Source of the DNA: Callaeas wilsoni | Lineage: Eukaryota > Chordata > Aves > Passeriformes > Callaeidae | DNA length: 64,000 bases | Direction: 5' to 3' | NCBI GenBank assembly: GCA_013398955.1 | Contig: VWPU01006280.1 | Coordinates: 248,001-312,000, forward strand | In this document: positions 32,805 through 52,379 of the stretch, piece by piece | How positions within the stretch are numbered: the stretch's first letter is position 1 | Layout: each line of letters opens with the position of its first letter | Translations under genes and position numbers: made by a program | Notes under the pieces: generated by a model | The model's database searches: none | What the model was told of the DNA's origin: nothing | What the model saw: only the letters and a program-made list of their open reading frames with translations

Positions 32805-32956
32805 TTATAGAGGAGAATTTTCTCCTGAGTGCCCTACCTCTGCCCTTCCATATCCCAGTCTCCATTGTCCAAGGATGTCCATGCTCAGATACCTGTACAG
32901 CTCTATACGCCCTGTAGCTATGAGAAGCAGTTTCACTGATGTGCTGATCATCTCCC
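32805..32956 (-). CDS. Nested small gene, last coding exon (candidate C10orf113 homologue)
   Basis: This is the terminal exon of a predicted 108-residue protein. The acceptor is CAGCTTTGTAG|GG, and its first two bases complete a Gly codon begun by the exon at 34475-34554. Then 49 codons stay open to a TAA at 32807-32805. The peptide starts EMISTSVKLLLIATGRIELY and ends GENSPL, with a hydrophobic stretch around residues 66-73 and Trp at 90. No domain is recognised. A second frame is also open here for 136 codons, so openness alone is weak evidence; the case rests on phase agreement across three exons. The pyrimidine tract is only moderate. Position and strand inside the NEBL intron match what I recall of human C10orf113, whose sequence I cannot compare. 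Confidence 0.55.
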
Positions 32957-34474
32957 CTACAAAGCTGGGGCTTGGATGCCATAAAGCCCTTTGATATTGT
33001 AGAAATGTCCAAAACTGAAAGTCTGTTACTTCAAAGTGCTCTTGGTGTACTGGAAAACTCCAGTTTCATGCTGGGGGCAGATTTTTTACCTACATGAAAA
33101 GGTAGAAGAAAGGCCCCTAGGAAATCCTTATGGGTTCACAGCCCTTACAAGCAGGATCCACTTTTAGCCTATATATAGACCAATGAGAAAAGGACCAGAC
33201 CATATTTCAGGAGAATTTGATGAATACCCTACGTGAGGAGACTCATTTCTTTCTTTCAGCATTAATTCTGTGCACAGTGATGCATCAAATCTTTGTTACA
33301 CCTTGAACCAAAATTATCAAGGTACTAACTTAAAATAATTTCTTATGACAGAGGAATCAAGGATGAACATCCAGGGTGGAGGAGCACTAAACTCTCCAAT
33401 ATGCCTCTTGCGCAGCATCTTACAGAAACCTACTAGATCATCTTCTTCAACCTTACTTTTCATGAAATTGTCTCCAGATACACAGAAATTGTATTAGTTT
33501 AAACTGAAGTAAAACCTAATTTAATTAGATCAGCTAAATATTTTGCAGGAGGATCTTAAATAACTTTCAGCACTATAAGAAGTACTTTTCCTACCCATTT
33601 CCATTAACTTCCTAGACATTAAACGTATGAGTCAAGACTCACAATTCTCTTAAATCAATTCCGAACTTCATTGTCACTTAGAAGAGAATCCTGTCCTCTC
33701 TCAGTCTTCCCACACAACTCACAAGTGTTAGCTTCCCGCACAGAGGGGTGGGAACCTCCCTGGCACTGTCACAGCAGCAGCACCTCTTTAAACAGCAACA
33801 TAATGTTAGATCAGCCCAAGAAGAATGTCACACCACAGCCTGAAACGCATCCTTATGGTCAGCCATCAATCCTGTACACATCATCAGCCCAAGAACAGCA
33901 AGTGTTCCACTTCTCTAAACTTCGCTCTTTGCCACCCCTAACTCCTGGAAAGTGTAGGTAAGCCTGTCTTCAATCTACCTTCTCTGTAAGATGTTGACCA
34001 GCTTTTTTACCACTAATTCACAGATTGCTGTAAAATATGAGCTTTTGCCCAGACAAATATAACCATTACTTAGCCTTATAAGTTCATAAAAATATAAATG
34101 TTTTCTGACAATCCTCATGGTTAATTAACTTTGCTCTTGAAAACATTCACTTTAATTCAAACTTAAGTTCATCATCCAGACAGTATATCTTAGTTTTGCT
34201 TTCTTCAAAACATACGATTTCTTTCTCCAAACAAACATCCTCTTTCTTCACAAAATCTTTCAAAACCATGAACTTATTTCAATATTTTATTCAAAAAAAA
34301 AAAAAAAGAAAGGATTAGCCTAAGGACTAAAATCTTGCCTTAGATCAATCCTTTAGCCTTTCTCCAAACCTCCTCTACTTTGCTTCTCAAATGTGTCCAT
34401 CAGAACTGAAACTGCTGCTTCTACAGAGGAATACTAATACTAATAGACAAACAATGACATCTATAGGTTCATAC
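32957..34474 (-). other. Intron 2 of the nested gene's coding part (1.5 kb)
   Basis: This lies between the donor at 34474 and the acceptor ending at 32957. Nothing recognised inside. Confidence 0.45.
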
Positions 34475-34554
34475 CTGTCAGGTCTTGTAACTCTTCTGGT
34501 CCCTGCATAAGCAGCTGATAATGCACCCTGCGTATCATTTTCCTGTTTTCTCTA
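34475..34554 (-). CDS. Nested small gene, middle coding exon (candidate C10orf113 homologue)
   Basis: This is an 80-bp exon, entered with one base completing a codon (T of CAT, His) and left with one base of the next (G of GGG, Gly). The acceptor is GCTTCAG and the donor is ACAG|gtatga. It encodes 26 whole codons beginning RENRKMIRRVHYQLLMQGPE and ending ELQDLT, a basic then polar segment likely to be helical. The incoming phase exactly fits the exon at 52270-52379 and the outgoing phase fits the exon at 32805-32956. The pyrimidine tract is poor, although a CCTAAC branch-point-like sequence lies about 50 bases upstream. The same frame stays open upstream to an ATG at 34652, so an alternative first exon starting here cannot be excluded. 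Confidence 0.6.
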
Positions 34555-49800: not shown

Positions 49801-52269
49801 AAAGCTTCCAAGTAGATCAAGTCTTGAAGTCACTAGTGTTTAAAGAGAGACTCATATCCTTTAGTCAGACAACAGTTACCACAAAACACTTCATAGTTGT
49901 CTTCATTACAGCTTGGAATTTTTCATTCCATAAAATACAGCGCAAAGAGGCATATGCAATACAGTCAATACCATAGCAAAATGTGACAATGGCATACCTG
50001 TCAATTTATTCCTCACATTTACATCGCTGTTTTAGCTTTCAATCAGCATTTTCAGAGTTACAAGTAAGTACAGAAGTAAATGTTGAGGTCAGTATGTATC
50101 TCTAACACATTCATCTATTGACAAGCTGACAATTAGTATGGATTAAAAATGAACTCCATGAAATGTTACGTTACACATTTGAAGATTATGTAGTAGTTTC
50201 TTAAACTACTGATGCCTTTCATATAAGCCTTGCCTTGCAATATGAATGTTATCACAAATAGAGAATCAAACCAGTGAGACAGAAATTTCTATCTTTTTCT
50301 TTTGTATCCCCTAACTAGATGATTCTACTTTATTATTATTTTACCCAGGAAAAGCCCAAGAAGTATTTTTCTAGGCTGGATTGAGAAATAGAGCAGTCTT
50401 ATAGAACTGAAGTGTATATCATGTAAAGCAACCCATCAATGCAAATACAAGTTTAACGAAATACAGGTTCAACTTAAAATTTACCAATGCCATTAACATA
50501 AATGAATGCAATGCCTTTGATTCTGGAGTGCAATGACACTGTTCTAGTTTACACAAATGCATTATTTAATTATTTTTTTGTAACACTGAGGTTTCTCACT
50601 GTTTTCAAAACAGAAACATGATAGGAAATCCCTAGCAAAATATTTAGGTTATCACTTGATTCAATTCTACTTTAAGTCTACAGTTTTGCAACTAATTTAC
50701 ATTTAGCATTCATTTCTCATGCATGGGTTGACCCACTTACACATGCAGTAAATCCATGCCTTTGGGGATTTTTCTGGATGGCTTGCTGTATTTCAACCAC
50801 ACAACTCATTTTATTTTGTCAATACAGTGAGCAAGGTTACAGTTATCCTGTCAAATTTATTTATTTAAATTAGAATCAGAAAGACTATACTACTCCCTGT
50901 GGAACTTCACTGAAAACTTCTTGAAACTTTGAGGCTACATGCTTCTGCAACCAACTGATTTCGTATGAAAGCACTGACACGAAAAAAAATAATAGTTACA
51001 ATAACTTCTTTTGTAAACTTATTAAATAGACTTCTGAAACCTTAGAAAAATGTAATAAACCACAATAAAAAGCATCATATTATAATTGCTTTAAAAAAGA
51101 GAGAAAAAAGATTTTTTCTAAGCAACCCTATAGAACAAAGCCAGATGGAATAAGATCATTTAAGAAGCAGCTATGTAGGCGTCACATCTGCTTGCTTTGA
51201 CTATCAGAGATCCACTTAACCTAAAATATTTCCCCTTGCATCTCTTGAGGATTCACATTTGAGAAGCTTCATTTGAGGTTGCTTACCATCCTCGCAGTAG
51301 GGCTGCTGAAAGGGAACCTTCCCCAGGCAGAAACTGTCATAAGGTTACATGTCATTCAAGTCCAACCAGACTTGTGTGTAACAGAAAGGAACATCCATTT
51401 TACACAATTTGCTAATGTGGGGTTTCTTTCATACATTAGTAGCTTACCAGAACCTCAATATAGATTTGCAGATAGTGTTTCAGTGGACTTACCCAAAGGC
51501 CTATCTGAATTTACACAGCTAATGCTATTGTGGGCAGTATGACATATAATAATATTTCTAATGCTAACAATTTTTCCAAATGCAGTTAAGCCTCGGGCAG
51601 GGGTTTGTTTTCCAGCTTCTCAAAGAAAAAATGCTTCAGCTCATTCTATACAAGAGTTATGCACCTTTCCACTTGTGTTACAAAAGAAGCAGCTTTATAA
51701 CAACATCACTGATAGACTCTAATGCTTCTCCTGCTCTGGACCGGGAAGCTGACCTTTAGCAGGTGAGGAATGTCACCTCATTAGGGATATCTGTTGTACT
51801 ACCATGGAATATCGTCTATAACTCAGTTACACATTGCTGAAAATGGAACATCCACCTGCTCAGCAGAAATTTAACTGTTGTTTAAGTCATCTAAATTATT
51901 CAGTTCCACCTGTACTGACAGTTTCATGCAGAATTACTGTAATGACTATCTGACATTCCAAAAAGTATCCTCCAAGTTGGCATTCTGGGGTCTAAAAATA
52001 CTGTTTCTTCCCACATGTTGGGAGTTATTGTTATGTAAATCACAAGTATTAAGAAAGAGAGACCAGAAAAGAGAATCTGAAAAAGTTATGGGAACAGAAA
52101 GAGAAGTCAGTGCCACCCCAGATGAATCACGAACACGCTGCTCTGGATTCTCAGTAATCTTTTCCTCCCCAACAAACAACTGTAAAATTCGCTAGCAAAG
52201 GCTGTGCCTCCCTCTACTTCTAATAGGAGGCTACACAGAAGATAATGGTTTACTCTAGGTGCTACTTAC
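46830..52269 (-). other. First coding intron of the nested gene, 5' part
   Basis: AT-rich intron without a supported exon or intact transposon. An A12 run lies near 49185-49196. Confidence 0.5.
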
Positions 52270-52379
52270 TGTATTAGCATGAATAATGTCTGTGCTTTAG
52301 CTCTTCGTTTAAGTAAGGACCACATATCCATATCCTCCATACTGGAGGATTCCAGTAGCTCCATATTTCTTGGACAACT
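52270..52379 (-). CDS. Nested small gene, first coding exon (candidate C10orf113 homologue)
   Basis: This is a 110-bp exon with a good pyrimidine-rich acceptor (TTGTTTTCAG|AG) and a consensus donor (ACA|gtaagt). The chosen start is the ATG at 52364-52362, with A at -3 and G at +4, a strong Kozak context. From there 31 codons plus two bases are coding, so the coding part is 52270-52364 and the rest is leader. The peptide begins MELLESSSMEDMDMWSLLKR, acidic and Met-rich, then turns basic (KRRAKAQ, residues 19-25) and hydrophobic (LFMLI, residues 27-31). The exit phase of 2 fits the exon at 34475-34554. No domain is recognised. Another frame from an earlier acceptor position is also open, so the frame choice depends on the downstream exons. 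Confidence 0.6.

What the first reader, a model, noticed from the sequence alone, without database searches (positions are those of the whole stretch)
32805..52379. A small undescribed gene nested in the NEBL intron, same strand
Three exon-like blocks (52270-52379, 34475-34554, 32805-32956) with GT/AG borders join with phases 2 and 1 matching exactly. They give a 108-residue protein with a strong Kozak start and a TAA. The sequence is unlike any family I know: acidic N terminus, basic middle, hydrophobic patch at residues 66-73. Location and strand agree with my memory of human C10orf113, a gene of unknown function within NEBL. If confirmed, it is a conserved vertebrate orphan gene that could be transcribed through or co-regulated with LIM-nebulette.
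Basis: partly seen in the sequence, partly recalled or inferred. Interest (0 to 1): 0.85.

Follow-up and report, generated by a model that had tools for sequence, protein, structure and literature searches.

The report
Unproven small-gene model inside NEBL intron
Three short stretches in an intron of a heart-muscle gene can be joined on paper into a 108-residue protein, but the joins are no better than chance gives and the only stretch that could be compared with a relative changes about as fast as the intron beside it, so this is not shown to be a working gene.

Summary
The setting is right too: recalled NEBL sequence places a LIM-nebulette exon at 58365-58472 and nebulette coding exons at 8741-8809, 8574-8645 and 2047-2151, all minus strand.

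The evidence for a gene is weak. Three-exon chains at least as well spliced and as long number 1072 on this strand and 654 on the wrong strand. The three acceptors score below the three NEBL control acceptors. Blocks 1 and 2 found no relative in a 5.8-billion-protein set. Block 3 found one, an unspliced frame from an unnamed source. There block 3 changes residues at 0.8 times the rate of the adjacent intron read in the same frame (95% range 0.39-1.64), and the frame runs past the window's stop.

Most likely this is a chance or decayed chain, not a constrained protein gene. A counterpart of human C10orf113, which itself carries a common frameshift, stays possible; homology to it could not be tested.

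The parts
52270..52379 (-). Block 1: AG acceptor, 5 in-frame codons (SCPRN), ATG at 52364, then 31 codons and 2 nt of the next, donor gtaagt
   Evidence: acceptor 4.97 bits (rank 421 of 4533), donor 6.48 bits (rank 124 of 3889). No relative found.
34475..34554 (-). Block 2: 80 nt, in frame with block 1; weak acceptor, good donor gtatga
   Evidence: acceptor 1.49 bits (rank 1103 of 4533), donor 8.25 bits (rank 33 of 3889). No relative found.
32805..32956 (-). Block 3: last block, to TAA (32805-32807)
   Evidence: acceptor 5.38 bits (rank 364 of 4533). Matched by P0001, an unspliced frame.
32957..33197 (-). Intron directly upstream of block 3, matched by P0001 in the same reading frame, about as conserved as block 3
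   Evidence: 56 of 78 codons identical, after leaving out the gapped codon and two codons that are stops in the window, against 38 of 49 in block 3
32574..32813 (-). About 240 bp, including the window's TAA, with no counterpart in P0001's frame, where GENS runs directly into SIFLPQFLKLEL
   Evidence: tblastn of P0001 on the window: GENS ends at 32814 and ETTSIFLPQFLKLQL lies at 32538-32582; length counted by hand from these coordinates
58365..58472 (-). NEBL exon of LIM-nebulette (nebulin repeat VKYKRDFEESKGRG..QISN), phase 0 at both ends
8741..8809 (-). Nebulette first coding exon (MRVSVIQDLREDENED...)
8574..8645 (-). Nebulette coding exon 2 (IFLKPVIEDRNMELARKCSELISD)
2047..2151 (-). Nebulette coding exon 3 (IHYKEEFKKSKGKC..AFISE)

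Best explanation
The three blocks are intronic sequence of NEBL, in the long intron between a nebulin-repeat exon of LIM-nebulette and the nebulette-specific exons. As drawn they do not make a selected protein. The join is one of very many chance chains, possibly overlying the decayed remains of a C10orf113-like orphan gene. Shown: the position inside NEBL, the abundance of equally good chains, intron-like change in block 3 against one relative, and a frame in that relative that runs past the window's stop. Inferred: that blocks 1 and 2 are likewise unconstrained and that no stable spliced product exists. If the region is transcribed, that would be mainly as LIM-nebulette pre-mRNA, from which it is spliced out.
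For: Equally good or better chains: 1072 of 6902 on the same strand, 654 of 4115 on the opposite strand. In a looser set of chains of 100 or more residues, the candidate's codon score is equalled or beaten by 4441 of 15127 same-strand and 3743 of 21123 opposite-strand chains; GC-corrected, by 2283 and 3605. Acceptors of 4.97, 1.49 and 5.38 bits against NEBL controls of 8.99, 12.77 and 10.35. Block 3 changes like the adjacent intron. GC-corrected codon score of block 3 is equalled or beaten by 0.52 of stop-free stretches of its length. The relative's frame is open through the intron and past the window's stop. No relative of blocks 1-2 was found.
Against: Both donors are strong (ranks 124 and 33 of 3889) and the first beats one NEBL control donor (6.48 against 4.79). 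Blocks 1 and 2 have GC-corrected codon scores of 2.1 and 1.1 (0.078 and 0.135 of null stretches do as well), at the low end of four NEBL exons (2.4, 1.9, 4.6 and 7.4). The raw score of block 3 is equalled or beaten by only 0.11 of null stretches. Real-sequence chain counts exceed those of the Markov sequences on both strands. Block GC (0.39, 0.45, 0.48) exceeds the flanks (0.35, 0.31, 0.36). AATAAA occurs 331-482 bp beyond the stop (32474, 32333, 32325), though nine AATAAA/ATTAAA lie in the 1.8 kb examined. Block 3's frame is open in both sequences, though an ORF collection selects for that. The constraint test covers one relative and 49 codons, and a rate ratio down to about 0.3-0.4 is not excluded. 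Human C10orf113 is recalled at the same place and strand.
Confidence: 0.53

Rival explanations
1. The blocks are coding exons of a real counterpart of C10orf113: a small, fast-evolving orphan gene with its own, unseen first exon and promoter in the NEBL intron. It would make a short, partly basic protein whose C terminus drifts between species.
For: Continuous frame with correct phases and a strong Kozak. Strong donors. Codon scores of blocks 1 and 2 at the low end of NEBL exons. Location and strand agree by recall; a paper puts an intron variant of human C10orf113 at 21,126,655 on chromosome 10 (PMC9446411, passage). Human C10orf113 itself tolerates loss: a reading-frame-shifting indel with 35% heterozygotes, for which the table gives 40.51 as percentage of the protein (PMC11490764, passage), and it is in a table of genes in a section on homozygous loss-of-function variants (PMC3868571, passage), so weak constraint would fit.
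Against: Signals are within chance. Weak acceptors. Block 3 evolves like intron and its stop is not shared. No spliced homologue found in the protein set. Homology to C10orf113 is untested.
Confidence: 0.38
2. The blocks are alternative terminal exons of NEBL. LIM-nebulette's exon at 58365-58472 ends in phase 0 and would splice into block 1 in frame, giving a LIM protein with one nebulin repeat and an orphan tail of 113 residues in place of the SH3 end.
For: Block 1 starts at an acceptor and is open in phase 0 from its first base; the join with the NEBL exon reads without a stop to GENSPL. Block 1 lies 6 kb downstream of that exon, and no CpG-island-like window marks a promoter of its own.
Against: Phase agreement alone has about a one-in-three chance. 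Same lack of visible constraint in block 3 and same weak acceptors. No transcript evidence, and no such isoform is known to me (recall).
Confidence: 0.05
3. The blocks are exons of a noncoding RNA or untranslated exons feeding the downstream nebulette promoter.
For: They lie 24 kb or more upstream of the nebulette ATG on the same strand, and the donors are good.
Against: No Rfam match at gathering scores in the window, which says little about unknown RNAs; no transcript evidence.
Confidence: 0.04

Closest known systems
Human C10orf113 (10p12.31), uncharacterised gene in or beside NEBL
   Same: Recalled to lie inside NEBL on the same strand; a dog study treats it as a neighbour of the NEBL variants it tested (PMC8412370, passages); listed under 'No available information' in PMC3868571 (passage).
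   Different: No sequence comparison could be made; human exon structure, length and relation to the NEBL exons were not available here. Expression was negligible in healthy dog heart, against co-regulation with nebulette there; one stem-cell study names NEBL and C10orf113 together among genes with lower expression on copy gain, without good p-values (PMC4298950, passage).
NEBL / LIM-nebulette (LASP2) and nebulette
   Same: The host gene; same strand; its exons lie on both sides of the blocks.
   Different: The 108-aa product has no Pfam match above cut-off; the only one listed is MpsC at E 0.17, 12.4 bits against a cut-off of 23.
P0001, 149-aa predicted protein from an unnamed source (lgn)
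   Same: Contains block 3 at 38 of 49 residues identical.
   Different: It is an unspliced frame through the intron, not the spliced product, with a different end. The 81% query coverage includes a poor stretch over blocks 1-2 that I read as chance, because that part of P0001 is the translated intron.

Membership tests
C10orf113 ortholog | Location inside NEBL, same strand | tested here: met
   NEBL exons on the minus strand on both sides; that human C10orf113 lies there is recalled
C10orf113 ortholog | Sequence similarity to the human protein | not testable with these tools
   The protein search with the 108-aa product returned only P0001
C10orf113 ortholog | Same intron positions and phases as the human gene | not testable with these tools
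   Human structure not available here
Protein-coding gene | Spliced transcript | not testable with these tools
   No RNA reads available
Protein-coding gene | Protein-level constraint, block 3 | tested here: not met
   Rate ratio to intron 0.8 (0.39-1.64); with other trims 0.68 (0.31-1.47), 1.52 (0.61-3.77) and 1.29 (0.5-3.35); one relative only
Protein-coding gene | Protein-level constraint, blocks 1-2 | tested here: inconclusive
   No relative found
Protein-coding gene | Splice and codon signals beyond chance | tested here: not met
   1072 same-strand and 654 opposite-strand chains as good; codon ranks
Protein-coding gene | Stop position shared with a relative | tested here: not met
   P0001 reads on into a segment about 240 bp further down in the window

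The most novel reading that the evidence does not exclude
The blocks are alternative terminal exons of LIM-nebulette, so that some transcripts make a LIM protein with one nebulin repeat and an orphan tail instead of the SH3 end; an orphan gene such as C10orf113 would then have been carved out of, or be spliced together with, its host.
Probability: 0.05. Interest if true: 0.6.

Novelty: not a real feature. Interest (0 to 1): 0.2.

Why it matters
If the gene were real, it would extend a human gene of unknown function to another vertebrate class and allow its constraint to be measured. In humans it carries a common frameshift (35% heterozygotes, PMC11490764), so its age and function are a fair question. 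As it stands, the case shows that matching phases and GT/AG borders over a 20-kb span carry almost no evidence: 1072 chains at least as good exist on the same strand.

Tried and rejected
Pfam, Rfam and PDB sequence searches gave nothing above threshold. Three protein searches were made: the 108-aa product found P0001 only, P0001 found only itself, and a composite of blocks 1 and 2 found nothing. Scans of viral contigs and of bacterial and archaeal genomes confirmed no relative among 2, 3 and 18 stretches that matched a pattern, as expected for vertebrate DNA.

Codon scoring has little power here: the LIM-nebulette exon itself is equalled or beaten by 0.30 (raw) and 0.06 (GC-corrected) of null stretches. 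In that call two control exons were read in a wrong frame; they were rescored, without a null distribution.

Paper searches: 'C10orf113' 12 papers; with 'NEBL' 2; 'C2H10orf113' 0; 'LIM-nebulette' with 'chicken' 8, listing only, apart from PMC8412370, which had been opened for C10orf113; 'nested gene' with 'NEBL' 0; phrases for an uncharacterized protein, homolog or ortholog 0. Of the 12 C10orf113 papers, passages of six were read; of the other six only the listing and the start of the abstract were seen. Structure prediction was not run: the joined product is not contiguous in the window, so it may not count as the window's own sequence.

Full report
What is there. On the minus strand, the window reads three blocks, 52270-52379, 34475-34554 and 32805-32956, with AG before each and GT after the first two, phases 2 and 1, and a 108-residue product ending in TAA. 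The ATG at 52364 has A at -3 and G at +4. Block 1 is preceded by an AG acceptor and its frame is open upstream to 52472, so the transcript would probably need at least one more exon upstream. No CpG-island-like 500-bp window (GC above 0.5, o/e above 0.6, steps of 100) occurs in the window. AATAAA occurs at 32474, 32333 and 32325, beyond the stop, among nine AATAAA/ATTAAA between 31000 and 32810.

Where it lies. It places nebulette coding exons 1-3 at 8741-8809, 8574-8645 and 2047-2151, all on the minus strand (borders read from the sequences). The blocks therefore lie in the LIM-nebulette intron: block 1 is 6 kb downstream of that exon, and block 3 is 24 kb upstream of the nebulette ATG.

Is it more than chance? 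I counted three-exon chains whose five splice sites each score at least as well as the candidate's, with exons up to 300 nt (last exon up to 600), introns up to 20 kb and 5 kb, and at least 108 residues. There are 1072 of 6902 on the minus strand and 654 of 4115 on the plus strand. Six Markov sequences gave 25 of 702, 27 of 2406, 2 of 1572, 137 of 2408, 13 of 2132 and 3 of 1864. The real sequence has more than the Markov sequences on both strands, so I take the opposite strand as the fairer control. Chains share exons and are not independent. In a looser set (acceptors at 1.4 bits or more, donors at 6.4 or more, 100 or more residues; the candidate itself counted) the candidate's codon score is equalled or beaten by 4441 of 15127 same-strand and 3743 of 21123 opposite-strand chains. 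GC-corrected, the numbers are 2283 and 3605; with splice scores added, 5599 and 4835 (raw) and 5176 and 7371 (GC-corrected). The donors are good (ranks 124 and 33 of 3889). The acceptors (4.97, 1.49, 5.38 bits) are below the three NEBL controls (8.99, 12.77, 10.35). The score tables were recalled, so absolute values are approximate.

Relatives. The 108-aa product found one protein in a set of 5.8 billion, P0001 (149 aa, E 9.1e-15). P0001 is not the spliced product: it reads the intron upstream of block 3 and then block 3 without a splice. The 81% coverage given includes a poor stretch over blocks 1-2, which I read as chance, since that part of P0001 matches the window's intron. Of the aligned codons, block 3 keeps 38 of 49. 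The adjacent intron keeps 56 of 78, after leaving out the gapped codon and two codons that are stops in the window (Fisher p 0.54). The ratio of change rates is 0.8 (0.39-1.64). Dropping the two last block-3 codons, next to an indel, gives 0.68 (0.31-1.47). Dropping the two worst intron stretches gives 1.52 (0.61-3.77), and both trims together give 1.29 (0.5-3.35). Strong constraint on block 3 is therefore unlikely, while moderate constraint is not excluded. After GENS, P0001 continues as SIFLPQFLKLEL. In the window ETTSIFLPQFLKLQL lies at 32538-32582, so about 240 bp, counted from these coordinates and including the window's stop, has no counterpart there. The source does not name the species of P0001, and an ORF collection selects for open frames, so the openness of its frame says little.

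Blocks 1 and 2. A composite query of the two with flanks found no protein sharing three 5-residue words. Their GC-corrected codon scores are 2.1 and 1.1 (0.078 and 0.135 of null stretches score as well), at the low end of four NEBL exons (2.4, 1.9, 4.6 and 7.4). Block 3 is at 0.52 GC-corrected, though at 0.11 raw; blocks 1 and 2 are at 0.24 and 0.10 raw. If anything here is coding, blocks 1 and 2 are the better candidates, and the last exon may be wrong.

What is known. C10orf113 appears in 12 papers. Passages of six were read. It is negligible in healthy dog heart (PMC8412370). It is named with NEBL among genes with lower expression on copy gain in stem cells, without good p-values (PMC4298950). 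[quoted passage not shown] It is listed under 'No available information' in a section on homozygous loss-of-function variants (PMC3868571). It has a frame-shifting indel with 35% heterozygotes (PMC11490764). An intron variant lies at 21,126,655 on chromosome 10 (PMC9446411).

Verdict. I put 0.53 on no selected protein as drawn, 0.38 on a counterpart of C10orf113 with at least some of these exons, 0.05 on alternative NEBL exons and 0.04 on a noncoding transcript. The field 'not a real feature' means 'not shown as a coding gene', and it rests on limited power.

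Noticed in passing
58365-58472 and 52270-52379: The NEBL exon ends in phase 0 and block 1 is open in phase 0 from its acceptor, so a direct splice would be in frame through all three blocks to the TAA.
   Followed up: partly
32574-32813: About 240 bp, including the TAA of block 3, has no counterpart in the related frame P0001; which side gained or lost it is not known. A search of 32583-32807 against the window found no strong second copy.
   Followed up: partly
33126-33161: Twelve of twelve codons of plain intron are identical to P0001: the intron beside block 3 is locally as conserved as the block itself.
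   Followed up: no
1468-1543 and 6430-6483: An ATAG microsatellite of about 20 copies and a perfect 27-bp tandem duplication.
   Followed up: no
23856-23894 and 32805-32956: A 42-column stretch of block 3 matches another place in the window at 76% (E 0.007), perhaps an old repeat or chance.
   Followed up: no
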